Assembly: GCF_023897065.1 (NCBI RefSeq)
Contig: NZ_JAMHIV010000006.1
Span: forward strand, 62,001-126,000
Direction: 5' to 3'
DNA length: 64,000 nucleotides
DNA from: Crossiella sp. SN42
GTDB lineage: Bacteria > Actinomycetota > Actinomycetes > Mycobacteriales > Pseudonocardiaceae
Both the position numbers and the translations under genes were made by a program. Numbering within the stretch: position 1 is the stretch's first letter; the number at the start of each line of letters is the position of its first letter. The notes under the pieces were generated by a model. The model did not search any database, was not told the origin of the DNA, and saw nothing but the letters and a program-made list of their open reading frames with translations. Shown one piece after another: positions 17,564 to 53,799 of this stretch.

Positions 17564-17737
17564 AGACACCCGCCAACCCCCAGCTGGACTGCGGGGAAAC
17601 ACCGGCTTCATGCCATCGGCCGGCGTGCGTCCACGTCACCGGGGTGAGAACTCCGGGCACGTCACCGAGTTCGCCGAGCCGTGTGCCGGTCTAAGTCGAT
17701 GAAGCCGTTGTGGCGTAACACCAAATGGAGATGGATC

Positions 17738-18700
17738 ATGCGTGCGCTCATCAACCACCGCAACGAACTGTACCGCTCGCCAAGCCAACACCCCGATCAC
17801 AGCCTTGACGGCTCCGACAGCGCGGTCTTTTTCCTGGGCAGGGGACGCACGGCCACGGCGTTGAGCAGGCGGCAGGGCGCCATCACCCCAGCCGAGCTGG
17901 TGACCCAGCCCTACGGTCGCGAACTGCTCGCATCGACCACCGACGCCGCTTACCGCAGCCTGGTCAAGAAGCTACGGACCCCAGTCACCGAGCCGATCCA
18001 GCCCTTGGGTGCGGACGGGGACCCGTTGCGATGTCCGCCCGGTGGGCACAGAGCCGTGAAATGGCGTCACTACACCGATTTTCCGGTTCCCACTTGCCTC
18101 TACGCCTTCGAGTACGGACAGGTCTTCCTGTGGCTGGTCTCGCCAACCCACGATCCCGACGACGATGAGATACAGCTCGAACCGCACGGGCAGTGGGCAT
18201 CGTTGTTACTGCCCCAGAAGGGATCCGCCGATCCCGTCTGGCTGATCCCGGAAGCGCGGGACTACGGCGAGAAGATCCAGTCCACTGTGGACCTGGACAT
18301 GAAGGGCGTCGCCAGCCTGATCATGGCCGACTTCCGGCGGGAACGGGAGAAGAACGCGGCGTTGTCGTTGTGCCAAGACCTCTGGATCGACCTCGCCGAG
18401 GATCTCAGCGTCACCCTGTACGTCTTCGGGCTGGCCGACGCTGACCTCAACCTGCCGCCCTACCGCAAAGGTGGGCCGTTCGGTTCCCGGGAGAACTGGG
18501 CCAGCCCAGGGCACAACGAACTCCAAGACGACATCGAAGAAGCTCTGACCAACCTCACGCGCCCCTACGACTGGACCAACCCGATCGACCCGGACAACGA
18601 CACCCGGCTGGGGCTGAGCATCAGGATCCTCACCGAGGACGGACAACGCCGCCACACCACCCGACGCGGAACCGTCACCGGCCCCGCGCGCCACCGGTGA
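17738..18700 (+). CDS. Four-paralog family, member 1
   Basis: A 320-residue soluble protein. Family landmarks: 'SAVFFLGRGR' near residue 30, 'TPAELVTQPYGRELL', a middle region with 'CPPGGHRAVKW', 'DPVWLIPEARDYG', 'LSLCQDLWID', 'VYVFGLADADL'-type strand (here 'LYVFGLADADL'), 'RPYDWTNPID' and 'TTRRGTVTG' at the C-terminus. No known catalytic motif, signal peptide or membrane helix is visible. ATG at 17738 follows a GGAG by about 8 bases. Members 2-4 follow on the same strand within 3.3 kb. The sequences share only these motifs, so the duplications are old or rapidly diverging. Function unknown. Confidence 0.7.
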   Translation: MRALINHRNELYRSPSQHPDHSLDGSDSAVFFLGRGRTATALSRRQGAITPAELVTQPYGRELLASTTDAAYRSLVKKLRTPVTEPIQPLGADGDPLRCPPGGHRAVKWRHYTDFPVPTCLYAFEYGQVFLWLVSPTHDPDDDEIQLEPHGQWASLLLPQKGSADPVWLIPEARDYGEKIQSTVDLDMKGVASLIMADFRREREKNAALSLCQDLWIDLAEDLSVTLYVFGLADADLNLPPYRKGGPFGSRENWASPGHNELQDDIEEALTNLTRPYDWTNPIDPDNDTRLGLSIRILTEDGQRRHTTRRGTVTGPARHR

Positions 18701-18769
18701 CCGACGCCGCCACGCCCCGCTCAAGCCAACTGACAACCCTAGGCACGCAACAGCAAAGGAGCCAGGACC

Positions 18770-19792
18770 ATGATCGGCCTACGTCTGCTCTGGAACGACT
18801 ACCACCTCTCACCGCAGGACGGGCCCCGCCTGCACGACAACGGCAAGCCCTACTTCGGTGACCGCGCCGCGTTCTTCCTCGGCCGGGGCCGAGGATCGCG
18901 CCTGCTGGGCAAACGCCGCGCCCGCTCTACCCCGGGGCAACTGCTGAGGCTGCCTGTCGGCCACGATCTGCTCAGCGCCACCACCGAACACGACTACCTG
19001 CGCCACGTCGAAACCCTGCTGTCCTGGAACGACAGCGACACCGATGACCACGACGCCGTACCGCAGCAGCTTCGCTGCCCAGCAGGCGGTGTGAAGGCCT
19101 CGAAGTGGATGAACTACGAACCCTACGAGGTCGGAGTCAACATCTACGCCTTCGACAACGGCGCGGTCCACCTGTGGAACCGGGAAGACCACGAGCACTA
19201 CACCGGACAGTGGTTCAGCCTCGACCTCCCCGCCCCCGGCTCGCCCGATCCAGTCTGGCTGATCCCCGAAGCGCGCGACTACGGCAACCGCGTCCCCGAA
19301 ACCGCCCACCTGGAACTACCCGAGATCGCCCACCAGATCCTGACCGACTTCCACCGCAGACGCACCGAGGACCCCGTGCTGTCACTGTGCCAAGACCTGT
19401 GGATCGACGTGCGGCTCCGCGGCCACACCACCGTGTACGTCTTCGGACTCCCCGAGGACGAACTCAACCCGCCGTGGCCGTGCCCCATCGAGCACATCCC
19501 CAACTCCTGCCTGCTGCGCGCCGAACCGCTCTACAACGAGTTCCAGGACGACATCACCGACGCGATCATCCGGCTGACCCGGCCCTACGACTGGCACAAC
19601 CCCTTCCAGGACGACGACACCCGCCTAGGCCTGACGGTGCACCTGCTCAACGCAACCGGGAACACCCGCCTCGCCAACTACCGGGGCACCGTCACGATCG
19701 TCGACGAACACCACCGCCGCGCCGTGCCACCACCGGCGAAACAGCAACCGCCGAACCACAATCGGTCCACTCCCGCACACCCCGCGCGGTGA
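18770..19792 (+). CDS. Four-paralog family, member 2
   Basis: A 340-residue protein with the same plan as its neighbours: 'RAAFFLGRGRG', 'STPGQLLRLPVGHDLL', 'CPAGGVKASKW', 'YAFDNGAVHLW', 'GQWFSLDLP', 'DPVWLIPEARDYG', 'LSLCQDLWID', 'VYVFGLPEDEL', 'RPYDWHNPFQDDDTRLGL' and 'YRGTVTI'. It has an N-terminal 'FGD' insertion relative to member 1 and a proline-rich C-terminal tail. AAAGGAG lies about 8 bases before the ATG. The repeated DTRLGL element suggests that members 1 and 2 are closest in their C-terminal thirds. Confidence 0.7.
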   Translation: MIGLRLLWNDYHLSPQDGPRLHDNGKPYFGDRAAFFLGRGRGSRLLGKRRARSTPGQLLRLPVGHDLLSATTEHDYLRHVETLLSWNDSDTDDHDAVPQQLRCPAGGVKASKWMNYEPYEVGVNIYAFDNGAVHLWNREDHEHYTGQWFSLDLPAPGSPDPVWLIPEARDYGNRVPETAHLELPEIAHQILTDFHRRRTEDPVLSLCQDLWIDVRLRGHTTVYVFGLPEDELNPPWPCPIEHIPNSCLLRAEPLYNEFQDDITDAIIRLTRPYDWHNPFQDDDTRLGLTVHLLNATGNTRLANYRGTVTIVDEHHRRAVPPPAKQQPPNHNRSTPAHPAR

Positions 19793-19849: not shown

Positions 19850-20821
19850 ATGTACGGGCTCCGCAACACCTTCGACACCTACTACACCTCCCCGGCCGTG
19901 CCCCACCTCGACACCACCGGCGCACCCGTCTACGGCGACTCCGCCGCGTTCTTCCTCGGCCGGGGCCCGGCGGCCCGATGGCTGGGCGAACTCCCCGACC
20001 GAGCCACACCCGGACAGTTGGTGCACCGACCCGGCGGGCGCGCCGTGCTCACATCACCCACCGGACACGACTACCACCGCGCGCTCGGCCAACTCCTGGC
20101 CACCAGGGCCAGCACCGAGGACCACCGGACCGACCGCACCCGGTACCCGCTCTGCCCGCCACCAGGCCGCGCAGCGCTGGGATGGAAGCAATACCCACCC
20201 CGGTCAACCAGAGCGACCCATCTCTACGCCTACGACCACGGCGCGATCCACCTCTGGGTACGCGACATCGCCGAGTTCCACACCCCCGGACAATGGCACA
20301 CACTGCTGCTGCCCGAGCACACCGGCGACCCGGTCTGGCTGATCCCCGAAGCCCGCACCTACGGTACCCAAGCGATCGAGACCGCCGAACTCGAACTCGC
20401 CGAGATCGCCCCGCTCCTGTTCGCCGACGCGACCAGCCGCCACGGCGAGACCAAGCACCTGCCCGCACCGCAGGACCTGTGGCTGCACGTCACCGACGAC
20501 CACCACCTCGCCATGCGGGTATTCGGCCTCCCCGACCACCTGCTCGGCACCCTCTGCGCCGCCGACCACCTCGGCGACGAGGAACCCTCCAGCAAACTCA
20601 CCAGCGCGAACTTCGACGGCGACCCGACTCTCCACCGCATCGCCACCGCCATCTGGGCACTCGCCGAACCCTACGACTGGACCAACCCGGTGGACAGTCA
20701 CGACGTCCGCTTCCGGTTCGCGGTGCGGTTCCTCAGCCACGCCGGACAGCAGCGTTTCGCCCACCGTCGCGGCACGATCACCCTCGGCCCGGACCACCGC
20801 CCACCAGCACCCGCTGGATAG
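19850..20821 (+). CDS. Four-paralog family, member 3
   Basis: A 323-residue paralog: 'SAAFFLGRGPAARWLGEL', 'TPGQLVHRPGGRAVL', 'CPPPGRAALGWKQY', 'YAYDHGAIHLW', 'GQWHTLLLP', 'DPVWLIPEARTYG', 'PQDLWLHV', 'MRVFGLPDHLL', 'EPYDWTNPVDSHDVRF' and 'HRRGTITL'. The cysteine of the LCQDLW motif is changed (APQDLW). Its C-terminal third resembles member 4 ('FLSHAGQQRF' against 'FLSQAGQRRF'). AGAGGAA precedes the ATG. After it lie 232 bases with no gene, ending in a leader shared with member 1. Confidence 0.7.
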   Translation: MYGLRNTFDTYYTSPAVPHLDTTGAPVYGDSAAFFLGRGPAARWLGELPDRATPGQLVHRPGGRAVLTSPTGHDYHRALGQLLATRASTEDHRTDRTRYPLCPPPGRAALGWKQYPPRSTRATHLYAYDHGAIHLWVRDIAEFHTPGQWHTLLLPEHTGDPVWLIPEARTYGTQAIETAELELAEIAPLLFADATSRHGETKHLPAPQDLWLHVTDDHHLAMRVFGLPDHLLGTLCAADHLGDEEPSSKLTSANFDGDPTLHRIATAIWALAEPYDWTNPVDSHDVRFRFAVRFLSHAGQQRFAHRRGTITLGPDHRPPAPAG

Positions 20822-21053: not shown

Positions 21054-22033
21054 ATGCGTGGACTCAGAAGTGCCCGGCTGCCCAGCTATCGATCACCCCA
21101 GCAGGACCCCTGGAGGCAAGGCCCGCCGAGACGACCTCCGGGACACGCGGCCTTCTTCCTTGGCCGCGGCCCCCAGGCGCGGCTGTTGGGAGTACGCCGG
21201 GAACGCACCACCCCGGCCGATCTTCTGGCACTGCCCCACGGCAGAGCCGTGCTGACCGCCACAACCGTCCAGGACTATCTGCACTCGACGCGAAAGCTGT
21301 TGGCATCCAACGACATCACCGAGATGGCAGCCGCCGATGGAGATGAGATCCTCTGCCCGCCTACCTGGCCCGCCGCCCAGGAGTGGCTGGACCACGTGCC
21401 ACCCGACAGCATCACCCACCTCTACACCTTCGACGGCGGCACAATCCACCTCTGGGCCTGCGACGCTCCACGGATTTCCCCTATAGGCCAATGGTTTCTC
21501 CCGGTGCTCCCCGAACCGGACAGCGGCGACCCGGTCTGGCTGCTCCCGGAAGCCGATGCTACGGACCCCAAGCCGTCCCCACCGGCGACCTCGAACTCCC
21601 CGAGCTCGCCCCCCGGATCCTCGACGACTTCTGCGCCGAACACGCCACCACCCCGTTGATGTCTCGGCGAAACGACCTGTGGGCCTATGTCGGCGGTGAA
21701 GATGTCCTGTTGATCATGGTCTTCGGCTTGAAAGACGATCAACTGGGCGAGTTCGCGAACCACCTCATCCACGGTGAGCCCCGCTCCCAGGGACTGGTCA
21801 GCTGGAACGCGCCCACGCAACGGCGTCTCGCGATCGTGTGGAGGAAGATCGCACCGATCGTGGACCGCTACGACTGGACCAACCCACTGGACCAACACGA
21901 CATCCGCATCTGGCTCAACATCGGATTCCTCAGCCAAGCAGGCCAGAGACGGTTCCACAACCGACGCGGCACGGTCACCATCGCCCCAGCCACCGCGCGG
22001 ATGCCGCGGCCACTCCACACCTTTCCGGAATAG
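21054..22033 (+). pseudogene. Four-paralog family, member 4, frameshifted
   Basis: The first 500 bases encode 'HAAFFLGRGPQARLLG', 'TPADLLALPHGRAVL', 'YTFDGGTIHLW' and 'DPVWLLPEA'; then the frame goes astray. The family sequence resumes one base out of phase with 'YGPQAVPTGDLELPELAPRI', 'RNDLWAYVGG', 'IMVFGLKDDQLGEF', 'DRYDWTNPLDQHDIR' and 'NRRGTVTIAP' up to 22033. Adding one C at the CC of 21553-21554 restores 'PEARCYG', matching EARDYG and EARTYG of the paralogs. The gene is therefore intact apart from one base. A sequencing error in a C-run is as likely as a true mutation. The restored length is about 327 residues. Confidence 0.7.
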
Positions 22034-23745: not shown

Positions 23746-26644
23746 ATGTTGGAAAAGTTCAATGACGGCGCGAGGCAGGTGAGTGTCCTGGCCGAGGGCG
23801 AGGCATGGATGCTGAACCACAACTACTTCGGCACTGAGCACATGCTACTGGGCTTGATCCGCGAAGGTGACGGTCTCGCGGCGCTGGTGCCCGAATTGCT
23901 GGGGATCGCGCTGGAGCGCGTGCGTCAGCAAATCGAGGAGATTGGCGGCCAGGGCCAGCAGGCACCGCCGAGTGGGCACATCCCTTTCACACCCCGGGCC
24001 AAGAAAGCGCTTGAGCTATCGCTGCGTGAGGCGCTGCTGCTCGGCCACGACTACGTTGGCACGGAGCACATCCTGCTCGCCCTGATGTGTGAGGGCGAGG
24101 GGGGGCGCCACCCAAGTGCTCGCGAGGCTCGGGACCGAGCCCGACCGCCAACGCGAGCGGGTCTTTCAGCTGCTGAGGCACTCAATGCCTGAGGAGAGCA
24201 ACGAGGAACCCGCACAGCCACTCGCGTTCGATCGGTTAGGTCGCAACCTCACCATACTCGCGGAGCAGCGCAGGCTCGACCCCGTCATTGGGCGGGACGA
24301 GGAAATCGTGCGGGTCATGCAGGTGCTGTCCCGCCGCACCAAGAACAACGCCGTGCTCGTCAGCGAGCCCGGCATCAGCGCCACCAACGTGGTGGAAGGT
24401 CTCGCGTGGTGCATTGTCCGGGGGACGGTGCCGGACACGCTGAGGGGCAAGCAGCTGTGCACCCTCGACCTCAGTGCACTGGCCGCAGGGCAGGTCGAGG
24501 ACATCAGAGAAGCCTTTAATGAGATCCACACCCGTGGTGATGTCATCCTGTTCGTCGACGAGATCCACACCCTTGTCGGCACGGACGCCGACATCCTGCT
24601 ATCGCATGCGCGGTCGATAGTTAAGCCGATGCTGATCCGCGGCGAACTGCAGGTCATCGGTGCGGCCACAGCCGACGAGTACCACCGGTACGTCGAGAAG
24701 GATCCCACGCTGGAACACAGCTTCCAGCCGATCCTAGTCGGCGAGCCGACGCTCGAGCACGCCATCGAGATCCTGAAGGGTGTGCGCGACCAGTACGAGG
24801 CACACCACCGCGTCTTGATGACCGACCAAGCCCTCGTCGCGACGGTTACCCTGGCCAGCCGGTACTTCTCGGACCGGCCACTGCCGGAAAGCGCGCTTGA
24901 TCTTCTCGATAAGGTCGGTGCCCGCTCGCGCACCCGCCGCATGCTCGCACCGCCGGCCATGCGCGAGTTCGATGAGAAGATCGCCGACTTGCGCCGCCGG
25001 ACAGAAGTTTTGATGGGCGTGCAGGACTTCGCGGGCGCCGCGCGGCTGCGGGACGACGAAAGGCAGTTGTCAGACCAGAAAGCGAAACGCGAGAATCAAT
25101 GGAAGGAAAGCGCTCTCGGCGTCGCGGAGGTCGACGAGGACGAGATTATCCAGATCGTAGCGGAGGAAACAGGGATTCCCGCCGATACGATTCGTGACAC
25201 CTGGTCGCCGGAGGCGGAGACCTACCAGGAAGCCCCCTCTGGCGAGAACGGGTACAACCTACTCAACGATCAGCCTGTTACCGACGCCGTCGGCGATCTC
25301 CTTGGCACGACCGAGACCGCTAAGGGTATCGCGGCGATCCTAACCCGTACCTCGTCGCCGTTCGTCATGGCAGTCGACGGCGGGTGGGGTACGGGCAAAA
25401 GCAGCCTGCTGCGCCAGATCGAGGCCGCGTTGCCAGAAAACCCCGACATGGTGAAGGTGTCGTTCAACGCGTGGACGGTACAGGGTGAGAACGCGCTCGA
25501 CTCGCTTATCAAGTCCGTAATCGCGAAGCTGGACGCGCGGTTGCTGCGGAGATGGATCCGTAAACTCTCAAAGAGTCGCCACACCCTCAACTTCCTCCGC
25601 TTCGGGTTCTCGGTTGCGGCTGGGTTCTTCGGTATCTCCCGGCTCGCGGACGAGTTGTGGACAACGCTTGAGGTGAACGCTAAATCACGCAACGAACTGC
25701 GGAACTGGGTTCAGGAGATCCTCGAGGACTGGACCAAGGAGTCCGAACTACGAGCCGGCCGCAACCTGGTGGTATTCATCGACGACCTCGACCGCTGCTC
25801 CGACACCGTCGTGGTCCAGATTTGCGAGGCCGTGAAACTCTACCTCGCGACGACTGGCGTGATCTTCGTCATCGGTTGCGACCTATCCGTGCTGGCTCGC
25901 GGCGTCTCGACCTCTGCCCGCGGTGGCGAAGGCGAAGGCCGAACCTACCTTGAGAAGATCGTGCAGGTCGTCTACCGGATCGCAGTCCCGGACCGGGCGA
26001 GCACGGTGCACTTGGTGCACAGCTATGCCAAGCAGGCGGGAGTCGACGGGTTCGTGGACAAGACCGTCACCAAGATCCTCGTGGAGCGCACGGAGGGCAA
26101 CCCAAGAAGGATTAAGCGGATCATCAACAGTTTCGTGTTGCAACAGAAACTGAGTCCCGCCTGGCGAAAACCGCCGCTGGGTAGCAGCAGGCTCATCGTT
26201 GTTATTATCATCCAACACCTCTATCCGGCCGTCTACGACTCGCTGGTCAGCGCCCAGACAGGAGCTGACCCAATCGGGGAATTCCTTGACTACGCGGAGA
26301 TTCGCGCCCGCGTAACCGATCCGCCGGGTGGCAGCGACACGTGGTGGTCCACCGCCAGCCGGGTTTTTCGGCGTCACGGCATGATGCTCCCAGGTCGTGC
26401 TCCCGGACTGCGCGGCGAGCTCATCACAAAGCTGGAGCGCCTAGAGCGGGGACTTCCCGCCCACTTCGTCGAGTTCGCCGCCAACGAAGCCCTGACCACG
26501 CTGCTGCGCGAACTGGGCGACCTCGAGACCCGCCTCGCGGTACGCGCACAACTGATCAGCCGCCCGCTGAGCACCGGCTCGTTCCCCGGGATATCGCGCG
26601 AGGTAACGCAGACAACCACGACCCAGACCGCGGTTGACACGTGA
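23746..26644 (+). CDS. ClpC/KAP chimeric NTPase, interrupted at a G7 tract
   Basis: With one G removed from the run at 24099-24105 the two frames join into a 965-residue protein. Residues 1-145: Clp N-terminal double repeat ('HNYFGTEHMLLGLI', 'GHDYVGTEHILLAL'). Residues about 160-390: ClpC first AAA+ domain, but the P-loop reads 'SEPGISATNVV' instead of GEPGVGKTAV, the pore-loop segment YRGDFE is deleted, and the arginine finger ERRFQ is EHSFQ; Walker B 'LFVDEIHTL' remains. Residues about 395-480: UVR/M-like coiled coil. Residues about 500-770: KAP NTPase with an intact Walker A 'GGWGTGKSS', a hydrophobic helix in the KAP insertion, and Walker B 'VVFIDDLDRC'. The second Clp ring and ClpP loop are absent. 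The upstream part alone stops at 24192. A regulatory or defence ATPase is likely (inference). No family name is known to me for this fusion. Confidence 0.8.
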
Positions 26645-26905: not shown

Positions 26906-27862
26906 TTATGGCGAGTCAGGTGTGGCACCTACCGGCCTGGACGCGCCGGTGTAATTGCCGACGGGATCGATGCGGACCACGGCGCCGGCGTGCGGCGCAT
27001 TGATCATCTTTCCGCCGCCCAAGTACAGACCGACATGGTTGATCTTGGTCTGCGGGTTGCCGTAGAAGATGAGGTCCCCCGGCAAGAGCGACTGGCTGGC
27101 GGCTACACGTGGTCCGGCGTGGAACTGTGTGTGGGCGGTGCGCGGCAGGGAGATCCCGGCGGATGCGTAGGCCGCTCTGGTCAGGCCCGAGCAGTCGAAC
27201 CCGCCCTCGGAGGGCCCGTCCCCGCCCCAGACGTAGGGCTGGCCGAGTTGGCGGCAGGCGAAGCGGATCGCGGCCTCGGCCGAGGGGCTTGGTGCCTGGA
27301 TCTCGGTGCAGCTCGCGGTTCCGGCCGTGTCGGCTTTGGCGTAGCGGTCGGCTTGGGCGAGGACCTTGCGGACGTACCAGTCGGCGCGGTTGTAGGTGAA
27401 GATCGCGCGGTAGAGGTCTTTGCCGTGGCGGGCGCCGGAGTCGCACAGGTAGTGCGCGGCGGCGTGGATGGCATCGTGCGGGTTGTAGCGCGAGGGCGGG
27501 TTCGCACCGCCGGATGGGAGCCGGTGGCGGCGCAGGACTTCGTCGAAGGTGGGCTGGAGGAACTGCATCGGCCCGCCCGCCCCAGCGGAGTTGTGTCCAC
27601 TGTGGACTCCGGGGAGTGGTGAGCGGCCGTGGTCGGTCTCGATTTTGCCGATGGCGGCCAGGATGCTCCAGTCCAGACCCGGGCACTGGGTGGCCGCGGT
27701 GCGGTAGAGGGCGAGGTAGTCGGCGGGGATGTCGGCGAGGGCAGCGTCGCCGGGTGTGCCGCCGGTGGAGCCGGTCAGCGCGGTGAGCATTCCCGGGATC
27801 GCCGCGGCCACGAGCGTGATGACCGCGGCCAGGCTGGTGCCGATGGCCAGCAGCAGCTTCAT
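26906..27862 (-). CDS. Lytic transglycosylase + NlpC/P60 peptidase of the conjugation system
   Basis: A 318-residue exported wall hydrolase. An N-terminal membrane anchor ('LLLAIGTSLAAVITLVAAAI') is followed by a transglycosylase domain with the catalytic glutamate in 'AAIGKIETDHGRS' and 'GGPMQFLQPTFDEV', then a C-terminal NlpC/P60 domain with the catalytic cysteine in 'GGFDCSGLTRAAY' and the histidine in 'NHVGLYLGGGKMI'. The pair cuts both glycan and peptide and opens the wall for the transfer channel, like VirB1-type proteins. ATG at 27862 overlaps the stop of the upstream gene (ATGA), which fixes the start. No extra residues are needed from the longer frame. Confidence 0.9.
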   Translation of the reverse strand: MKLLLAIGTSLAAVITLVAAAIPGMLTALTGSTGGTPGDAALADIPADYLALYRTAATQCPGLDWSILAAIGKIETDHGRSPLPGVHSGHNSAGAGGPMQFLQPTFDEVLRRHRLPSGGANPPSRYNPHDAIHAAAHYLCDSGARHGKDLYRAIFTYNRADWYVRKVLAQADRYAKADTAGTASCTEIQAPSPSAEAAIRFACRQLGQPYVWGGDGPSEGGFDCSGLTRAAYASAGISLPRTAHTQFHAGPRVAASQSLLPGDLIFYGNPQTKINHVGLYLGGGKMINAPHAGAVVRIDPVGNYTGASRPVGATPDSP

Positions 27863-28905
27863 CGTGGCCGCCGGCTGTGCCAGGCCACGCCTTCCCACGG
27901 CGGATGCGGATCCGGAGCGCCCACCACCGCGACCCCGCCCGGATCACACCCAGCGGCTCCAGACGGCGGCCGGAGTGGCCAGCACGTGGGCAGGGCGGCC
28001 AGTTCCATGCGCTCACCGGGTCGGCTGGTATTGGGGGCGGTGGCGGTCGGGATGGGCAGCCAGCAGGCGCCGCCGACGTGGCTCTCCAGCGTGGGCACCA
28101 CCTCGTGGGTGCTGGTGGCCACCGGCACGAGGTCCGGGCGTTCCAGCTCGGCCAGAGTCGCGGTCAGGGCGCGGCGGGCGCTGGCTTCCCGGGCAAGGGT
28201 GGGCAGCCAGAACAGCACCGGGGTGGCGATCCCGGTGGCCATGGCCAGCTTCTCGTAGGTCAGCAGCTTGGCCGCGAGGGTGCGCAGCGGCTCGGTGCCG
28301 CAGTCGAACTCCAGGAAGAACTCGACCTCGTCTGCGCCGTGGCGCCAGCGGGCGTAGGCGTCGGGGCGCGCGATGTCGCCCCAGACTTTCGCGCAGCGGG
28401 TCTCTGACCACCAGGTCACCAACCGGCTGCTCGCCCCGGTGGCGCGGCTGGCGGCGATGAGCCCGGTGAACAGGCCGTTGACGCCCAGCAGGTGGGTCAG
28501 GGTCAGGGAGGAGGAGATCCCGAGGACTTGGCGGCGCTGGTAGCCCAGCGTCTTGGGGTCGAGGCCGTGTTGATGGGCCACGACAGTGGCCCCGGCGGGG
28601 CCCAGGACGTAGTGGTGGGGCGCGGAGCCGGAGGTGACGAAGGGCTGGAACCGGTCGAGCACACTCCAGGCGTGCAGGCGCTGCAGGCGGTGGTTGGCCG
28701 CGCGGAGGGTGGGCCAGGCCAGTTCGGTGATCTGGTGGCTGGTCAGCACCCGGTGCTCCCAGAGCATCCAGGCCAGCCACCGGTCGCGTGGGGTCAACCG
28801 GGTGGCCAGGCGGGCTTGGTGTTCGGCCGAGCAGGCCGCGCGCGGGGAGGGCCGGCGGGGCATGTGCCCGCGGAGTTGACGTTGCCGGGTGCTGTTGGTG
28901 ATCAC
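27859..28905 (-). CDS. Replication-relaxation family protein
   Basis: A 348-residue cytoplasmic protein. The sequence 'LTPRDRWLAWMLWEHRVLTSHQITEL' is a winged helix-turn-helix, followed by 'RLHAWSVLDRFQPF', 'HYVLGPAGATVVA' and the acidic 'VEFFLEFDCGTEPL' with 'LAAKLLTYEKLA', features of the replication-relaxation family (Replic_Relax) common on actinobacterial plasmids and integrative elements. It may take part in initiation of element replication or nicking. GTG at 28905 follows GGAG by 7 bases. It is translationally coupled to the wall hydrolase. The C-terminal 60 residues are proline-rich and poorly conserved in appearance. Confidence 0.8.
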   Translation of the reverse strand: MITNSTRQRQLRGHMPRRPSPRAACSAEHQARLATRLTPRDRWLAWMLWEHRVLTSHQITELAWPTLRAANHRLQRLHAWSVLDRFQPFVTSGSAPHHYVLGPAGATVVAHQHGLDPKTLGYQRRQVLGISSSLTLTHLLGVNGLFTGLIAASRATGASSRLVTWWSETRCAKVWGDIARPDAYARWRHGADEVEFFLEFDCGTEPLRTLAAKLLTYEKLAMATGIATPVLFWLPTLAREASARRALTATLAELERPDLVPVATSTHEVVPTLESHVGGACWLPIPTATAPNTSRPGERMELAALPTCWPLRPPSGAAGCDPGGVAVVGAPDPHPPWEGVAWHSRRPR

Positions 28906-29111
28906 CGAGACGCTCCTTTTCAGCTAGACGAGTGGATTCGCATTCGATGCGACATCGGACTGCCTGAAGAAACTGCCGTACATACTGGCCAGGCAGACCG
29001 AGTGGGTGCCTTCGCTGGACGCCGGAATAGTGGTGCCATTCGCCGAATTGCGCGTCTTCATCAGTCGTTATTCGGTGGTGTCGGGATGAAGATCAGGGCA
29101 TACTGTTGTGC

Positions 29112-29750
29112 ATGGGAGGACAGCAGCCGGCGCCGCCGGAATGGGACGATCTGCGTGACGACTCACCGCCTGTCGGCCGGTGGGACCTCCAGAAGCCTCA
29201 GTTCGGTGAGCGGGTATGTGAGTGGTCGTCCATCCTCAACGACCTCTACTGGCGACGTGACGAGGACGGACGCGGCGAGCCTCGTGGCTATGACACGTCC
29301 GCCATGCAACGGCTTCGCGGTCTCATCATGGTTCAAGCGGCTGAAACCGAGGCCGTGCTCGGCCGTATACTCTGCAAGCTGAATCCACAGGCGACGCCTG
29401 AAAAAATGATGGCCGGCACGTTGATGAGAAAAATCTGGAACGAGCTTTCTGACAGTGACAAAGTTGCTTGGCAATCACACATGCGCCAGATGCTCAAAGC
29501 TCAGAACAGGCGGAATCATTCCGTCCACAACCGTGTAGATACTGGCTACACCTGGGCTGAGTATGCCACCGGCGGTGGCGAATGGATGCCGGTCATCACC
29601 ACCATGGGCGGCGAAGTCTATGACGAGCGCACGTTGGCTCATGATCTGGCGCTTCAGCAGTCATCCACGGTGCTTGCGATCGAGATGCTTCATGGGTTGT
29701 CGTGTTCCGATCACGATTTAGCTGATGAGTGCCCTGGTTGGTGGGAGTAA
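29112..29750 (+). CDS. Unknown cytoplasmic protein
   Basis: A 212-residue soluble protein with 'AMQRLRGLIMVQAAETEAVLGRIL' and 'HMRQMLKAQNRRNHSVHNRVDTG', the latter a histidine/arginine-rich helix of the kind found in HEPN-like or RNA-binding proteins (R-x4-6-H-like spacing). I do not assign a family. A CATACT box lies 7 bases before the ATG, which would fit a leaderless transcript since no ribosome site is visible. The gene is divergent from the replication-relaxation gene and has codon positions less GC-rich than its neighbours, a sign of separate origin. Confidence 0.6.
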   Translation: MGGQQPAPPEWDDLRDDSPPVGRWDLQKPQFGERVCEWSSILNDLYWRRDEDGRGEPRGYDTSAMQRLRGLIMVQAAETEAVLGRILCKLNPQATPEKMMAGTLMRKIWNELSDSDKVAWQSHMRQMLKAQNRRNHSVHNRVDTGYTWAEYATGGGEWMPVITTMGGEVYDERTLAHDLALQQSSTVLAIEMLHGLSCSDHDLADECPGWWE

Positions 29751-30054
29751 CGGATATCGGCAGGGTCTGACCGGGACGGTCACCCGGTTCGGCACGGGCC
29801 GGGGCTGCGAGGCCGCAGCCCGGCGCGGTTGCTCGGTTCGCTGGCCGCGATCCAGTAGTGGGCTGTGGTGAAGCCGCGAGGGCGAGTTGCCGCTGGCGGT
29901 CAGGGTGACAGCACGAGGCCGGTGCGCGCTTCCTGAAGGCGTGGACGATGACGCCGAGGCTGTCATGGTCGGCTTGGCGTCGCGATCATGCCGAGCGCCG
30001 GCGAGGTTAGAGAACAGTCCACTGTTCGAATACGGTCCCGTCTCCAGTCGAAGT
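29751..30054. other. Intergenic region with hairpin
   Basis: A 304-base gap between convergent genes. A hairpin (GGGCTGC, loop GAGGCC, GCAGCCC) at 29802-29821 may terminate transcription in one or both directions. No convincing gene is present. Confidence 0.5.
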
Positions 30055-32568
30055 TCAGGCGGCTTGGCGGGGGTCGTTGGGGATGGCGCGGCGTCGAGGA
30101 GGGGTCTGCTCGTCGCGGGTTGGAGGGCGGGTGGTGCGCTCGGCGTTGCGGCGTGCCGCGGCGCGCAGGGTCTTGGCGCGTCCGGGGATCGGGGGAGGGA
30201 GTTTGCGGGTGCGGGTGGTGAAGGGCGGGGTTTCCCCGCCGTGCACGATCAGGCGGGCCGCGATCTGGAAGGCGCCGAGGTTGCTCAGGTCGTGCTCACC
30301 CAGCCGGGGTGCGGTGTGGCGGGCCAGGTGGCGGGCGTCTTCGGGTGAGGCGGCGAAGTAGATCTTGTTGCGGGCGTTGGCCGAGACGCCTTCGGCGAGC
30401 TCGCGGGGCAGCTGGGCCAGGTACTGGTGGGCCAGGCGCATCCCGAGGCGGTAGCCGCGGGCTTCGGCGAGCATGTCCCCGGGCGGGTAGGGCAGGTTGA
30501 GGAAGTTGTGGAACTCATCCACCGTCAAGGAGGCGTCCCGGCGCTGGTGCTGGGGTTGGCGGGCGCGGCGCTGGGCGGCTTGCCAGGTGTGGGCGATGAC
30601 CAGGGAGCCGACCAGGCGGGCGGTGTCCACGCCGAGGGAGTCCTTGGCCAAGCGCACCAACAGGATCCCCCCGTCGAGCACCGCGTCGGGGTCTACTGTG
30701 GACTCGCCTCCGGCGAGGGCGTCGCGGACGTAGCGGCGCAGCAGGAACCCGCGGAGCTTGTTCAGCAGTGGCGCGCACATCTGCGCGCGGGCCGGTGGCG
30801 AGAGCTCCTCAAACCAGGCCCAGAACCCTCGCAGCACCTCGTCGTGGACGTGGGCCAGGGCGCGGTGCCGGAAGGCGGGCACCGAGAGCAGCTTGGGCAG
30901 CTGGGTCAGGGTCGGGGTGCCGGGTTGGGCGGTGAGGGTGAGCAGGCTGGCGCGTAGGATGTCCTCGGTGCGCGGCCCCCAGGAGGAGGCGTAGACGCGG
31001 GAGAAGATCGACACCAGGTTGTCCACCACCCGGGTGGGGTCTTCGCCCTGCAACGGGTTGAGCACCGGCGGGCGTCCCGGGGCGTCGGGATCGAAGAGGA
31101 TCAGCTTGTCGCCGCAGTCGGCGGGCAGCCGGGCCAGGAGGTCGCCGACGAGGTCGCCCTTGCCGTCGATGACCACCGCCCCGCGCCCGGCCTGGACATC
31201 GGCCAGCACCAGCGCGGCCAGGAGTTCGGACTTGCCGGAGCCGGTGGCGCCGAGGATGTGCAGGTGCTGGCGGGCATCGGCGGCCAGCAACCCGACCGGC
31301 CGCTCATGGCCCGCGTCGCTGGTGCCCAGGGGCAAGACCTCGGCTCCGGTGGTCGGGATCCCGGGCGGGGGCGGGACGGCGCGGGCGCCGGCGCGGTGAA
31401 TGCCGGGCACGTCCTCATCCACCGGCAGGTGGGCCAGCGCGGCGAGTTCGGGGACTGAGAGCAGGTCGCCGCGGTCCAGACGGCGGTGCGCCAGGGTGCG
31501 GGCGGGGTGGCGCAGGCGGTGACGGCGGTAGTGGTTGTGTGCGCCGTAGACGGCGAACGCGCTGGCCACCGCGTGGGCCCTGCCTCGGGTGAGCGCCTGC
31601 GCCGCCGCGGTCAGCTCGGCGGTGGCGCCGGGCGGGAGGGTGGTGGTGACGGCGTAGCGCAAGCAGGTCTCGTATTGCCCGCCCTGCTGTTTGCTCACCA
31701 CGGCGCGGTCCTGGGCGGAGAAGGCCAGCCTGGTTTGGTGATCCACCCCCGAGCGGCCCGTCAGGTCGCCGCGGGTGCGGTGGGCGGTGGGGGTGAGCGC
31801 GGCCAGCAGCCGGGCGAGGGGATAGGCGGCGCCGTGGCGGGTGTGCAGGCGTCGGGCGGCGCGGCGGGTTCGGGCCAGGCGCAGGCCGGTGGCCGGACGG
31901 GCCAGCAGTTGCACGCAGGCCTGCTCATGCGGGCCCAGGCCGACCACCGCGCCCAGCAAGGCCCGGATCGGGTCGGCGGTGAACTCGGTGCGCAGCGGCA
32001 GGCCCTCGGCGCGGTGCAGGCGCAGCTGGCCGCCAGCCTCGGCCACTCCGGCCCCGCTGGGGAGGGGGTGGCGGGCGGGGGTGGTGCGGGTGTGGGCGCC
32101 GGGCCAGGCCGCTTCCACCGCGCGTTCGACCATCCCGGGCGGAATGGTGCCCGGGACCCACAGGCGCAACCGGACACCGTCGGCCTCGGCGCAGTACTCG
32201 AAGGCCAGGTGCGGCTGACCCCGGAATCGGCGCGTCCAGCGGGAGCTGAGCAGGCCGATCAGGTTGGCCCACAACGTGATCCCGCCTGAGGGGTCGACTT
32301 GGGGTGGGGCGAGCACGGTGACCCACCGTGCCTGCGAACTCCAGCGATTGTGGCAGCGTCGCTGCCACACCCACCGCCCACCGCACACCAGGGTGACCGT
32401 GACGCTGGTCAGCAAGCCGGCGAGCAGACCGTGCTGCTCAAGGAAGGTCAGCAGGCTGTTCCACATCACCTGCGGCACCGCAGCAGGGTCCTGGAGGTAC
32501 TCGCTGAGCGGGCTGTTCTCGACGTCTGCCGTGGCCATGGGCAGGGTGTGATTGGGGTTCACGGGCAT
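30055..32568 (-). CDS. VirD4/TraG-like coupling ATPase
   Basis: An 837-residue membrane-anchored ATPase that brings DNA to the type IV secretion channel. It has N-terminal hydrophobic segments (around residues 40-65), a long region with 'PGTIPPGMVERAVEAAWPGA', Walker A 'GATGSGKSE' near residue 440, 'VVIDGKGDLVGDLL', Walker B 'TVDEFHNFL' near 683, and 'SANARNKIYFAASPEDARHLA', typical of the TraM-recognition part of TraG/TrwB/TcpA proteins. ATG at 32568 follows AGGAG by 7 bases. It is convergent with the 29,112 gene and divergent from the nuclease gene. The fit to conjugative coupling proteins is good. Confidence 0.88.
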   Translation of the reverse strand: MPVNPNHTLPMATADVENSPLSEYLQDPAAVPQVMWNSLLTFLEQHGLLAGLLTSVTVTLVCGGRWVWQRRCHNRWSSQARWVTVLAPPQVDPSGGITLWANLIGLLSSRWTRRFRGQPHLAFEYCAEADGVRLRLWVPGTIPPGMVERAVEAAWPGAHTRTTPARHPLPSGAGVAEAGGQLRLHRAEGLPLRTEFTADPIRALLGAVVGLGPHEQACVQLLARPATGLRLARTRRAARRLHTRHGAAYPLARLLAALTPTAHRTRGDLTGRSGVDHQTRLAFSAQDRAVVSKQQGGQYETCLRYAVTTTLPPGATAELTAAAQALTRGRAHAVASAFAVYGAHNHYRRHRLRHPARTLAHRRLDRGDLLSVPELAALAHLPVDEDVPGIHRAGARAVPPPPGIPTTGAEVLPLGTSDAGHERPVGLLAADARQHLHILGATGSGKSELLAALVLADVQAGRGAVVIDGKGDLVGDLLARLPADCGDKLILFDPDAPGRPPVLNPLQGEDPTRVVDNLVSIFSRVYASSWGPRTEDILRASLLTLTAQPGTPTLTQLPKLLSVPAFRHRALAHVHDEVLRGFWAWFEELSPPARAQMCAPLLNKLRGFLLRRYVRDALAGGESTVDPDAVLDGGILLVRLAKDSLGVDTARLVGSLVIAHTWQAAQRRARQPQHQRRDASLTVDEFHNFLNLPYPPGDMLAEARGYRLGMRLAHQYLAQLPRELAEGVSANARNKIYFAASPEDARHLARHTAPRLGEHDLSNLGAFQIAARLIVHGGETPPFTTRTRKLPPPIPGRAKTLRAAARRNAERTTRPPTRDEQTPPRRRAIPNDPRQAA

Positions 32569-33010
32569 GGCGGGCTCCTGAAAAGACGTGATTGGAGATG
32601 TCGGTAGGCGGCTCGCTCAAGGGCCAGCGCCAAGGTCATGGCCGGTTCACCACGAACTGAAAGACCTGCAGGAACGACGGCACGGCAAAGGGCTGACTCG
32701 ACCCAGCCGGCGACGAAGTCGGCGGTAGGGCCATTAGTACCTTTATAACGCGTGCTCGGTCACACAGCGATCAGCGTCACAGCATTGAGTCTTGTGTGTT
32801 CGCTGCGGCCAGGAAGGGGCTTCTGGCTCTGCTGCAAGTGGGTGATTGATGTTGCAGCCGTGGTGTCACCCGATTGTGTTGGATATGGTGGGTTCGTCAC
32901 CTTGGGGGGTGCGGGCACCGCCAACTCTGCTGGCCGATTGTCCGATTTTCTTGCCTCCCTTTTCGTGGCGCAGTGATCACGTTGCAGCTTGAATGGGGAG
33001 GACGAGCTTC
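32569..33010. other. Divergent intergenic region
   Basis: About 440 bases between the coupling ATPase (minus) and the nuclease gene (plus), with a change to lower GC around 32,730. A TATAAC box at about 32,742 could be a promoter element. No convincing gene is present. Confidence 0.5.
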
Positions 33011-34405
33011 ATGCGCGCCTTAAATAGCAGTAGACGGAAACTTTTGGTTCCCGTAATGGCCATGGTCGCTGTTGTTGGAGTTCTTGGAAATTCTCCAGCG
33101 TCGGCTGAGGCGGAAGCGACCATCGAGCTCGGCATGGTGCCGATGAGTCAGGTGTCGACGCTGGCCGATGAAGTCGGACGCAAGGTTTCTCCGGCAGTTC
33201 GTCAGCCGGGGCAGAAACCAACAAGGGTGCCGAAGAGCGCGGAAGAGCTTGACGAGATTCGACGGCCGGGCACACAGTTCGCGCCGGTATCGAGCCGAAT
33301 CGCCAACCGTCCGCCCGTGCCGGGCTCTGCCGCTTTCTCACCCGTTGATGATCCCATTACTCGGGCGGAATGCCAGAAGTTCTACGAGAATACCGAGCCG
33401 CCGCCGGATCAGTGGCACAAGAATCGCTTCAATCTGTGTTACGGCGCGATTCTCCAGGCTCGCAAGATCGACCAGAATGGCGCGGTCTTGGCGGCCATCC
33501 AGGCCAAGGCCGTGTTCATGATCAGCATGAACAAGAACGCCAGAAGCGCGGTCGTGTCGGTCGAATTGTTTGATTGGTTCAATGTCGGCGGCCTGTTCCC
33601 TACCAGTCAGAAAATCACTTTTGGGACTGGCTGCTGGGACCCGGAGGTGGGAGGTCCTGAGTGCACTCCCGACACCGTCAGCTTCGACGACACCATCGCC
33701 AACTGGCAGAACCGTGGAATCCGGCAGAAGGTGGTCGAGTTCTCCGGCACAAGCGCCATGAGGCCAGATGACCCGGCACCGAACGAAAAGCGAAGCTTCT
33801 ATCAGTTCGTGCCCTACTTCTACGTCCAGACGGGTCGCGGCACCGAAACCGACTTCGTGAGATGGCCGGAGCAGAATCTCCGATGCGACGTCGCGCGGAC
33901 GGTGGTGAACGACAAATACGTCCGCGGAAGCGATTGCGTGTTTCATAAGGACGTCGGGATTCTCAAGCTCGATGCGTCGAGGCCCGACATGGCGGAATCC
34001 GTGAACTTCATCAGGGATGCATTCGACAACATCGGCTCCACTAAGCCTGGGACCGCGGGATCGTATGTCCCCGGAAAGTTCGGGACCCCGACCAGTCTCA
34101 GTCGGCTCTATTATGACCAGGCATTGAGGGCTGCGAATCGGGATCATTCCATCGAGACCTGCATCGCGAACTACGGCAGAAACTACACGGTCCGGCCGGA
34201 CGGCAAAACTAACGATTGTGATGAGTACCCGTTTGCGGGTACCCACGAGGGGTCCCATCTTGCGCAGTTCGCGTTTCCTCGAAGCTTCGCGGTGAGACCG
34301 CTGCTGAACCTGCACAACCAGATGGTGGGCAGTGAGTTGAGCACCTATCTCGCCCAGGACCACGTGGTGGAAGGCGACCGCTTCCAGGTGCACGTGTACA
34401 ACTGA
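33011..34405 (+). CDS. Secreted NucA/NucB-type deoxyribonuclease
   Basis: A 464-residue exported protein with a signal peptide ending near 'SPASAEA'. The C-terminal 120 residues carry the NucA/NucB signature: 'NYGRNYTVRPDGKTNDCDEYPFAGTHEGS', where CDEYPFA and the following serine/glutamate region are hallmarks of these DNA-entry nucleases. The upstream 300 residues form an extra domain rich in aromatic and cysteine residues with no recognised family. GGGGAGGA lies before the ATG at 33011, preferred over 32993. A small gene resembling the NucA inhibitor follows 80 bases later. Action outside the cell on DNA is expected, perhaps in uptake, biofilm or competition. Confidence 0.8.
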   Translation: MRALNSSRRKLLVPVMAMVAVVGVLGNSPASAEAEATIELGMVPMSQVSTLADEVGRKVSPAVRQPGQKPTRVPKSAEELDEIRRPGTQFAPVSSRIANRPPVPGSAAFSPVDDPITRAECQKFYENTEPPPDQWHKNRFNLCYGAILQARKIDQNGAVLAAIQAKAVFMISMNKNARSAVVSVELFDWFNVGGLFPTSQKITFGTGCWDPEVGGPECTPDTVSFDDTIANWQNRGIRQKVVEFSGTSAMRPDDPAPNEKRSFYQFVPYFYVQTGRGTETDFVRWPEQNLRCDVARTVVNDKYVRGSDCVFHKDVGILKLDASRPDMAESVNFIRDAFDNIGSTKPGTAGSYVPGKFGTPTSLSRLYYDQALRAANRDHSIETCIANYGRNYTVRPDGKTNDCDEYPFAGTHEGSHLAQFAFPRSFAVRPLLNLHNQMVGSELSTYLAQDHVVEGDRFQVHVYN

Positions 34406-51703: not shown

Positions 51704-51893
51704 GCCTGGCGAACGGCGTGAGAAGCACCAAGTGCCAATGCCGGAGAGCGACATCCGGGTGATCTTCGAGATCCGCCAGGCGGACGGTCAGCAGGCCCGA
51801 GAGCTTGCGATCACGCAGGCCCATGTCATGCGGGAGGTGTTGGAATGGCTGGCCCGCGGGCGCTACTCGACTGGTCAGGACCACGCCGCGTAG
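51696..51893 (+). CDS. Small helical protein next to the integrase
   Basis: A 65-residue charged protein with 'PESDIRVIFEIRQADGQQAREL' and 'QAHVMREVLEWLARG', overlapping the resolvase-like gene by 8 bases and the integrase start by 49 bases. The first half could form a beta strand and the second an amphipathic helix. A role as excision factor (recombination directionality factor) is possible from size and place only. GAGGA lies 8 bases upstream of the ATG. Confidence 0.55.
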   Translation: MAEPGERREKHQVPMPESDIRVIFEIRQADGQQARELAITQAHVMREVLEWLARGRYSTGQDHAA

Positions 51894-53788: not shown

Positions 53789-53799
53789 GCTACGGGGGC
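53725..53799 (-). tRNA. tRNA-Arg (anticodon CCG)
   Basis: A full cloverleaf on the minus strand: acceptor stem GCCCCCG/CGGGGGC, D arm GCTC/GAGC, anticodon stem CTGCC/GGCAG with loop CTCCGGA (anticodon CCG), T arm GCAGG-TTCGAAT-CCTGC, and an encoded CCA. It reads CGG codons, frequent in this genome. The 3' end faces the integrative element, and the integrase frame runs through most of the gene on the other strand. Confidence 0.95.

What the first reader, a model, noticed from the sequence alone, without database searches (positions are those of the whole stretch)
23746..26644. ClpC N-terminal half fused to a KAP P-loop NTPase
The protein keeps the Clp adaptor-binding N domain, the first AAA+ domain and the M-like coiled coil of ClpC, but the P-loop lysine is lost (EPGISATN), the pore-loop segment is deleted and the arginine-finger pair is altered (EHSFQ). 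The second ring is replaced by a KAP NTPase with intact Walker A (GWGTGKSS) and B. It thus looks like a dead unfoldase ring used as a sensing or adaptor platform driving a different, active NTPase. KAP proteins include PifA, which blocks phage growth, so a defence or entry-exclusion role is plausible. I know of no named system with this layout.
Basis: partly seen in the sequence, partly recalled or inferred. Interest (0 to 1): 0.85.

Follow-up and report, generated by a model that had tools for sequence, protein, structure and literature searches.

The report
KAP ATPase wearing half a ClpC
A bacterial ATPase of a family linked to phage defence carries, as its front half, a disabled copy of the cell's own protein-unfolding machine ClpC, possibly as bait that senses attacks on ClpC; this is a reading from sequence only and no function has been tested.

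Summary
Window 23746-26644 encodes ClpC's N-domain, first AAA+ domain (D1) and M-domain fused to a KAP NTPase, with a frame break in a G7 run (24099-24105). It is no assembly artefact: three other sources carry the fusion in one frame of 910, 963 and 993 aa.

The "dead ring" is only partly general: the Walker A lysine and arginine fingers are lost in 3 of 4 fusions but intact in the Streptomyces plasmid copy; pore loop 1 is lost in 4 of 4. The lysine stands in 47 of 47 non-fusion Clp rows printed. The N-domain changed less than D1 in the 3 copies where it could be counted; the M-domain did not. KAP parts form one clade; the Clp halves look separately taken from each host's ClpC, though one clade is not rejected (p-AU 0.07). 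Between the four loci only this gene aligns.

Best reading: a one-gene KAP sensor or effector with a ClpC "integrated decoy". Evidence is sequence-only; structure models failed. Rivals: docking regulator, scaffold, antibiotic sponge, decaying passenger.

The parts
23746..24192 (+). First frame: ClpC-type N-domain (Clp_N), ending at the TGA of 24190-24192 after the frame change
   Evidence: ORF list, Pfam Clp_N E 1.9e-20; alignment to ClpC
24099..24105 (+). G7 run where the reading frame changes; only G/C run of 7 or more in the window
   Evidence: sequence
24089..26644 (+). Second frame: 851-aa ORF with D1, M-domain, linker and KAP NTPase
24185..24192 (+). ATG of the second frame overlapping the stop region of the first frame (ATGCCTGA): possible coupled restart, inferred
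   Evidence: sequence
24362..24388 (+). Degenerate D1 Walker A SEPGISATN (ClpC: GEPGVGKTA)
24479..24508 (+). Site of the pore-loop-1 deletion (ClpC SRYRGDFEERL absent)
24542..24562 (+). D1 Walker B VILFVDE, kept
24713..24721 (+). Arginine-finger position, EHS instead of ERR
24752..25054 (+). D1 lid and M-domain (AAA_lid_9); tip residues QDF..AA..RD kept at 25022-25054
   Evidence: Pfam E 3.1e-24; alignment; F436/R443/D444 contacts from passages of PMC5699869; the residue correspondence is by eye
25250..26641 (+). KAP P-loop NTPase and C-terminal part
   Evidence: Pfam KAP_NTPase E 1.1e-33; QatA, PifA, PDC-S20 profile matches
25382..25405 (+). KAP Walker A GWGTGKSS, intact
25781..25798 (+). KAP Walker B DDLDRC, intact
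26906..32568 (-). Context: NlpC/P60-SLT (26906-27898), replication-relaxation protein (27859-28905), T4SS coupling protein (30055-32568) of a conjugative element
   Evidence: Pfam; related elements

Best explanation
It is a self-contained KAP NTPase sensor/effector with an integrated ClpC decoy. The front half imitates the host's ClpC, an unfoldase that a phage protein and several actinomycete peptides are known to seize through its N-domain. Loss of the threading loop (all four members), and in the three copies of the window's family also of the residues for ATP binding and cleavage, would make the half harmless as an unfoldase while leaving its docking surface. Binding of a ClpC-directed phage protein or toxin would change its state and switch the intact KAP NTPase, which by analogy with QatA and RdrA would form a ring and start a protective response. 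Shown: the layout, the losses, the less-changed N-domain, the intact KAP motifs, similarity confined to this one gene. Inferred: bait function, oligomerisation, switching, defence output.
For: Fusion intact in three other sources. Pore loop lost in 4 of 4, lysine and arginine fingers in 3 of 4; lysine present in 47 of 47 non-fusion Clp rows printed. At ClpC-invariant sites the N-domain changed less than D1 in all 3 copies where it could be counted: G291 7/91 against 41/135, Streptomyces 11/91 against 33/141, A. vancoresmycina 6/52 against 40/135 (Fisher p below 0.0001, 0.039, 0.013; counts, tests). F2, F80 and E89, ClpC1 residues critical for cyclomarin A, kept in 3 of 3 intact-frame copies (passages of PMC10030653). 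Phage SPO1 Gp53 binds ClpC mostly through the N-domain, the linker region restoring full binding (passages of PMC6873191). Partial ClpC homolog ClpC2 senses and sponges cyclomarin A (abstract and passages). bNACHT25 needs the chaperone DnaJ to sense phage (abstract). KAP matches QatA, PifA, PDC-S20 and, weakly, RADAR RdrA 8fnu (E 5e-4). KAP parts of the four fusions are one clade (SH-aLRT 100, quick tree), while the Streptomyces Clp half groups with other hosts' ClpC (95/77) and shares only 3-4 identical new residues with the other three (1.8-2.6 expected if independent), against 33-40 among those three. D1 of the lysine-less type was found only in fusions: 2 of 278 family genomes at a cut-off set to exclude ClpC.
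Against: No ligand, trigger or phenotype is known. A. vancoresmycina lacks much of the second Clp_N repeat and the window copy is frame-broken there. Over recent evolution the N-domain is not slower than D1 (G291 against A. vancoresmycina, omega 0.39 against 0.43), and the Clp part has omega 0.26-0.50 among the three family copies, against 0.13-0.16 for KAP and 0-0.09 for the same domains of host ClpC, which also fits relaxed decay. The M-domain as a whole is not significantly less changed than D1 in any copy (p 0.14-0.83). One origin of the Clp halves is not rejected (p-AU 0.071 and 0.086), and the shared junction favours it. In the qatABCD system QatB and QatC suffice against some phages without the KAP protein (passages of PMC13279940), so KAP need not be an effector. 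Four of ten KAP-receiver sister loci read share an ordinary chromosomal setting.
Confidence: 0.38

Rival explanations
1. Docking regulator: the M-domain and D1 lid let the fusion join or cap the host's own ClpC resting assemblies, so that KAP is tethered to ClpC and its activity, or ClpC's, is tuned. The lost motor residues make it a subunit poison or a passive anchor.
For: M-domain tip residues QDF and RD kept in 4 of 4; the S. aureus counterparts hold ClpC head-to-head assemblies (passages of PMC5699869); the Clp halves resemble the host family's ClpC.
Against: Apart from the tip the M-domain is no less changed than D1 (p 0.14-0.83); lid and M have omega 0.33-0.50 among the family copies and 0.60 between Streptomyces and G291, the highest segment. 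No structure model was usable.
Confidence: 0.17
2. Assembly platform: the Clp half is an oligomerising and regulatory scaffold for KAP, with no ClpC-related ligand (closest to the first reader's view).
For: The Streptomyces copy keeps Walker A, Walker B and both arginine fingers, so its ring could still bind ATP and assemble; only the threading loop is lost in all.
Against: In three members nucleotide-binding and finger residues are lost, which should weaken ring assembly; sister KAP proteins manage without a Clp half.
Confidence: 0.14
3. Sponge for ClpC-directed natural peptides: a ClpC2-like tolerance factor whose KAP part is secondary.
For: Cyclomarin-contact residues F2, F80 and E89 kept in 3 of 3 intact-frame copies; N-domain less changed than D1; ClpC2 precedent.
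Against: The window copy has L at position 2; A. vancoresmycina lacks much of the second repeat; a sponge needs no NTPase, yet KAP is the most constrained part among the family copies.
Confidence: 0.12
4. Decaying passenger: a chance fusion whose Clp half is slowly degenerating while KAP works alone.
For: Omega of the Clp part two to four times that of KAP among the family copies; part of the N-domain gone in one copy, frame broken in another.
Against: Omega stays below 1 in every Clp segment compared (highest 0.60); three copies keep 451, 506 and 538 aa of Clp part in one frame; the pore loop is lost in two different ways.
Confidence: 0.19

Closest known systems
QatA (qatABCD anti-phage system)
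   Same: KAP NTPase; profile match E 5.8e-37 to the window protein; reported to bind DNA and to form 7- or 8-mers (passages of PMC13279940)
   Different: 127.7 bits against a cut-off of 600; no QueC or TatD family among the neighbours scanned; a Clp half in QatA is not known to me (recalled)
PifA and PDC-S20 (PADLOC)
   Same: KAP domain matches, E 1.3e-26 and 5.6e-25 for the window protein
   Different: The matched stretches lie in the KAP part only; function cannot be transferred
RADAR RdrA (8fnu)
   Same: Only solved-structure match at E 0.01 or better, E 5.3e-4 over profile positions 42-206; heptameric ATPase of a defence system (passages of PMC9994260)
   Different: Weak match; RdrB was not sought
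ClpC/ClpC1
   Same: N-domain, D1 and M-domain; over D1 and M 61-76% identical to the ClpC of its own or a like host group
   Different: No second ring; pore loop lost in 4 of 4; P-loop lysine and fingers lost in 3 of 4
Mycobacterial ClpC2
   Same: Partial ClpC homolog on a gene of its own, a sensor and sponge of a ClpC-binding peptide (abstract and passages)
   Different: ClpC2 is an N-domain homolog with its own dimer part and binds its own promoter; no AAA part and no KAP
KAP-receiver proteins of the window's family and of genus g93
   Same: Sister KAP cores, 33-45% identical in most matches, start motif of the LNDEP type
   Different: No Clp half; instead a C-terminal receiver-like domain (Pfam Response_reg E 8e-5 and 4e-5 in the two proteins scanned, below cut-off; others by eye)
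Plant NLRs with integrated decoys
   Same: An NTPase immune switch with a fused imitation of a host target (search listing only, PMC4246468)
   Different: Sensing not shown here; unrelated NTPase family (recalled)

Membership tests
KAP P-loop NTPases | KAP_NTPase domain above the curated score with intact Walker A and B | tested here: met
   117.3 bits against 20; GWGTGKSS and DDLDRC
KAP P-loop NTPases | Membrane segments inserted between Walker A and B (typical of many members, recalled) | tested here: inconclusive
   Best 19-residue hydropathy shown for that stretch 1.20-1.47 in three copies, no such peak among the five shown for G291; a usual threshold of 1.6 is recalled
QatA | NCBIfam QatA equivalog score of 600 | tested here: not met
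   127.7, 119.2 and 110.2 bits for window, A. vancoresmycina and Streptomyces proteins
QatA | qatB, qatC, qatD in the operon | tested here: not met
   No QueC or TatD family among 13 window, 6 G291, 3 plasmid and 2 A. vancoresmycina neighbours scanned; not every flanking gene was scanned
ClpC unfoldase | Second AAA+ ring with ClpP-docking part | tested here: not met
   KAP follows the M-domain after a short linker in 4 of 4
ClpC unfoldase | Pore loop 1 | tested here: not met
   Absent in 4 of 4; printed in 35 of 47 non-fusion Clp rows, the other 12 not matched by the search pattern
ClpC unfoldase | Walker A lysine of D1 | tested here: not met
   Lost in 3 of 4 fusions, window included; kept in the Streptomyces copy
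ClpC2-type sponge | N-domain with conserved ligand residues F2, F80, E89 | tested here: inconclusive
   Kept in 3 of 3 intact-frame copies; position 2 is L in the window copy
Integrated-decoy immune receptor | Domain derived from a host target and impaired in its own function | tested here: inconclusive
   ClpC-derived half with lost motor residues; nearness to the own host group's ClpC suggestive, one origin not rejected; that ClpC is an attacker's target in these hosts was not tested
Integrated-decoy immune receptor | Binding of a pathogen factor triggers the receptor | not testable with these tools
   Needs binding and infection assays
RADAR RdrA | Adenosine deaminase RdrB partner | not tested
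   No search for RdrB was made

The most novel reading that the evidence does not exclude
A bacterial counterpart of plant integrated-decoy receptors: one KAP NTPase lineage has at least twice taken up (or refreshed) the front half of its host's own ClpC at the same junction, each time losing the threading loop in a different way, to bait phage proteins or toxins that seize ClpC.
Probability: 0.28. Interest if true: 0.87.

Novelty: new variant of a known kind. Interest (0 to 1): 0.6.

Why it matters
If true, it would show that bacteria, like plants, build immune NTPases around imitations of host proteins that attackers target, and that the Clp unfoldase is such a target. It would also point to a search for ClpC-directed factors in actinophages and competing actinomycetes. 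Even if the decoy reading fails, a ClpC half stripped of threading and joined to a defence-type NTPase is an unusual use of the machine.

Tried and rejected
Assembly artefact: rejected, since the fusion is in one frame in three other sources. Family-wide dead P-loop: rejected by the Streptomyces copy. QatABCD operon: no QueC or TatD family among the neighbours scanned. Phage-borne gene: the KAP part gave 3 weak matches in 50,697 phage records and 1 weak locus (24% identity) in viral contigs. Conserved partner gene: none seen; in all six pairs of the four loci only the fusion gene aligned. Other proteins with the lysine-less D1: in 278 family genomes only two fusions passed a cut-off set above ClpC, which would not see a Streptomyces-type D1. 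The same question in plasmids gave 2,196 records, of which 25 were listed; apart from the known Streptomyces copy their identities (50-66%) are those of ordinary Clp proteins, and their motifs were not read (one, H26, lies beside lysS and lsr2). KAP-receiver neighbours: ten loci read, four share ordinary chromosomal genes, no shared defence context seen. Structure prediction gave no usable model (mean pLDDT 45.3 and 37.9), so no fold search was run. Alignment A2 with Clp-type proteins was dropped because their second ring would misalign with KAP. M-domain conservation as a general feature: dropped after each region was tested apart; only the tip motif is kept in all.

Full report
Observation. 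The window gene lies at 23746-26644 on the + strand in two frames. The first (23746-24192, 148 aa) holds Clp_N; the second (24089-26644, 851 aa) holds AAA, AAA_lid_9 and KAP_NTPase. The frame changes in a run of seven G at 24099-24105, the only G or C run of seven or more in 64 kb. The second frame has its own ATG at 24185, just before the stop of the first frame at 24190-24192, so a coupled restart giving a protein without the N-domain is possible; this is inference. The two frames were not joined.

Homologs. A pattern scan of the species genome collection returned seven loci related to the second frame; one is a full fusion, Amycolatopsis vancoresmycina L004, 910 aa in one frame, and the other six are Clp-type ATPases of 822-869 aa (stop to stop) matched in the Clp part. 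That scan finds close relatives only. The KAP part searched in 390 genomes of the window's family found 32 with a match at E 1e-30 or better; loci were given for 30 of the 32. Of these 30, 3 are Clp fusions (own, G291, and G251, whose contig has the length of the A. vancoresmycina contig and is the same locus) and 27 show no Clp half in ORFs of 150 aa or more within 1.5 kb. In 394 genomes of the class 4 matched: own, and three without Clp. In 396 genomes of the phylum 2 matched. These sets overlap, and in the large searches only the best 3 or 4 first-look candidates per genome were scored, so misses are possible. Among 72,556 plasmid records 154 matched KAP and one covered at least 80% of it: the linear plasmid of Streptomyces sp. 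NBC_00829, whose 993-aa ORF is a fusion. So four distinct fusions are known here. G291 is listed with 6% contamination. The window's family is inferred to be Pseudonocardiaceae because G251 is the A. vancoresmycina genome.

What was lost and kept. ClpC Walker A GEPGVGKTA reads SEPGISATN (window), GEPGVGATN (A. vancoresmycina), SEPGVGATK (G291) and GEPGVGKTA (Streptomyces). The arginine-finger motif ERRFQ reads EHSFQ, DRSCQ, DRSCQ and ERRFQ. The pore-loop stretch is deleted in the first three and replaced by a different sequence in the fourth. Of 52 rows printed, five are fusions (A. vancoresmycina twice); the other 47 are ClpC/ClpB rows, some proteins standing there twice; two fetched relatives (L087, L092) gave no row. 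The Walker A lysine is present in 47 of 47; arginine fingers are printed in 46 of 47 (one not matched by the pattern); the pore loop is printed in 35 of 47, the other 12 being not matched by the pattern (two of these, L083 and L084, show it).

Against 25 ClpC rows (15 of the family, 7 of the order, 3 others; near-duplicates, some further ClpC rows and all ClpB-type rows left out) 340 columns are invariant. Counted by region and tested apart, the N-domain is less changed than D1 in the three copies where it could be counted: G291 7/91 against 41/135 (p below 0.0001), Streptomyces 11/91 against 33/141 (0.039), A. vancoresmycina 6/52 against 40/135 (0.013; it lacks 39 of the 91 sites). The window's N-domain frame was not in this count. 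The M-domain is not: 7/31, 3/31, 8/31 and 8/31 (p 0.51, 0.14, 0.83, 0.40), nor is the lid (p 0.05-0.37); the stretch after M is more changed (p 0.002-0.15). The regions were chosen after looking at the alignment. An earlier pooled test of N plus M against D1 (2e-4 and 0.015) rests on the N-domain. The M-domain tip QDF..AA..RD is kept in all four; the S. aureus residues F436, R443 and D444 make ClpC's head-to-head contacts (passages of PMC5699869; correspondence by eye).

Selection. Pairwise omega (NG86) among the three family copies is 0.33-0.50 in the D1 and lid+M segments, 0.26-0.39 in the N-domain (the window's first frame included), and 0.13-0.16 in KAP. Between Streptomyces and G291 it is 0.22 (N-domain), 0.30 (D1), 0.60 (lid+M) and 0.18 (KAP, synonymous sites saturated). 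The same domains of host ClpC give 0-0.09 in two pairs. The Clp half is therefore constrained but much less than ClpC, which fits both an arms race and slow decay.

Origin. KAP parts of the four fusions form one clade among 32 KAP rows (SH-aLRT 100, quick tree without bootstrap; five short or broken rows left out). In the Clp tree the Streptomyces half sits with ClpC of g93 and f31 (95/77, just under the tool's starred level), away from the other three; none of 200 bootstrap trees joins the four, but a single clade is not rejected (p-AU 0.071; an earlier tree without g93 ClpC gave 0.086). At invariant sites changed in both, the Streptomyces half shares 4 of 21, 3 of 26 and 4 of 30 identical new residues with the others, against 1.8, 2.4 and 2.6 expected if independent under a simple BLOSUM62 model (simulated p 0.09, 0.43, 0.26); within the trio it is 36 of 49, 40 of 56 and 33 of 50. 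At nine sites that separate the two ClpC groups the Streptomyces half is 6 S-type to 1 P-type and G291 1 to 4 (Fisher 0.07). I read this as probable separate capture, or later replacement of the Clp half by recombination with the resident ClpC; the same junction in all favours the second. Clp parts evolve fast, so long-branch effects are possible.

Context. In all six pairs of the four loci the similarity lies within the gene or within some 25 bases of it. The window copy sits beside conjugation genes (NlpC/P60-SLT, replication-relaxation protein, coupling protein, further T4SS genes). Related elements in G100, G001, G002, G003 and G291 show other genes in that place, so it looks like cargo; none of the four congeners has this KAP. 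Near the other copies I saw a CHAT-domain gene 0.8 kb downstream on the same strand (G291), a LmuA-like and a NACHT-type gene 5.7 and 7.7 kb downstream (A. vancoresmycina) and a Hypoth_Ymh gene 2.4 kb downstream (Streptomyces plasmid). No background control was made, so this is weak.

Mechanism. KAP's relatives include QatA, PifA and PDC-S20 and, weakly, RADAR RdrA. Mass photometry suggested QatA 7- or 8-mers, though QatB and QatC alone protect against some phages (passages of PMC13279940); RdrA is a heptamer (passages of PMC9994260). ClpC is a real target: SPO1 Gp53 binds it mostly by the N-domain, with the linker restoring full binding (passages of PMC6873191); antibacterial peptides trigger it through the N-domain (abstract of PMC12583610); the partial homolog ClpC2 senses and sponges one of them (abstract and passages of PMC10030653). 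A bacterial NLR-like protein needs the host chaperone DnaJ to sense phage (abstract of PMC12169576). From these I infer the integrated-decoy model; every step after domain identity is inference.

Known or new. Four searches of the held papers gave no Clp-KAP layout in what they listed: 13 of 13, 15 of 47, 12 of 221 and 2 of 2 papers, seen as titles and starts of abstracts. Kaur et al. 2020 mentions ClpN repeats fused to vWA proteins of conflict systems (passages of PMC7159879). The library is not complete. I class the find as a new variant of a known kind.

Noticed in passing
window 17681-18700, 18770-19792, 19850-20821, 21054-22033 (+): Tandem array of apparent paralogs sharing an FFLGRG motif (seen by eye), the last one in two frames; the first three match no Pfam family and the first two no PADLOC family.
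   Followed up: partly
window 29106-29750 (+): 214-aa gene lying against the strand between relaxation and coupling genes; a 73% identical gene stands in the same place in the G291 element (L137:12838-13476), not matched among the ORFs called in the other four elements read.
   Followed up: partly
window 32993-34405 (+): Apparently secreted protein with a NucA/NucB DNase domain inside the conjugative region.
   Followed up: no
window 51845-53788 (+) and 53725-53799 (-): Large serine recombinase whose end overlaps a tRNA-Arg on the other strand: perhaps an end of the element.
   Followed up: no
L012-L013, L021-L040 and L096-L122: KAP NTPases without a Clp part, many with a C-terminal receiver-like domain (SDI-type motif by eye; Pfam in two); four of ten loci read share one chromosomal setting.
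   Followed up: partly
L046:16083-17786 and 18110-19000: LmuA-like gene (PADLOC E 5e-11) followed by a NACHT-type gene downstream of the A. vancoresmycina fusion.
   Followed up: no
G291 C5 and C4; G422 C1:4981252-4983615: G291 (6% contamination listed) carries two ClpC genes that are identical over D1 and M; G422 has an extra ClpC-like gene with an internal TGA.
   Followed up: no
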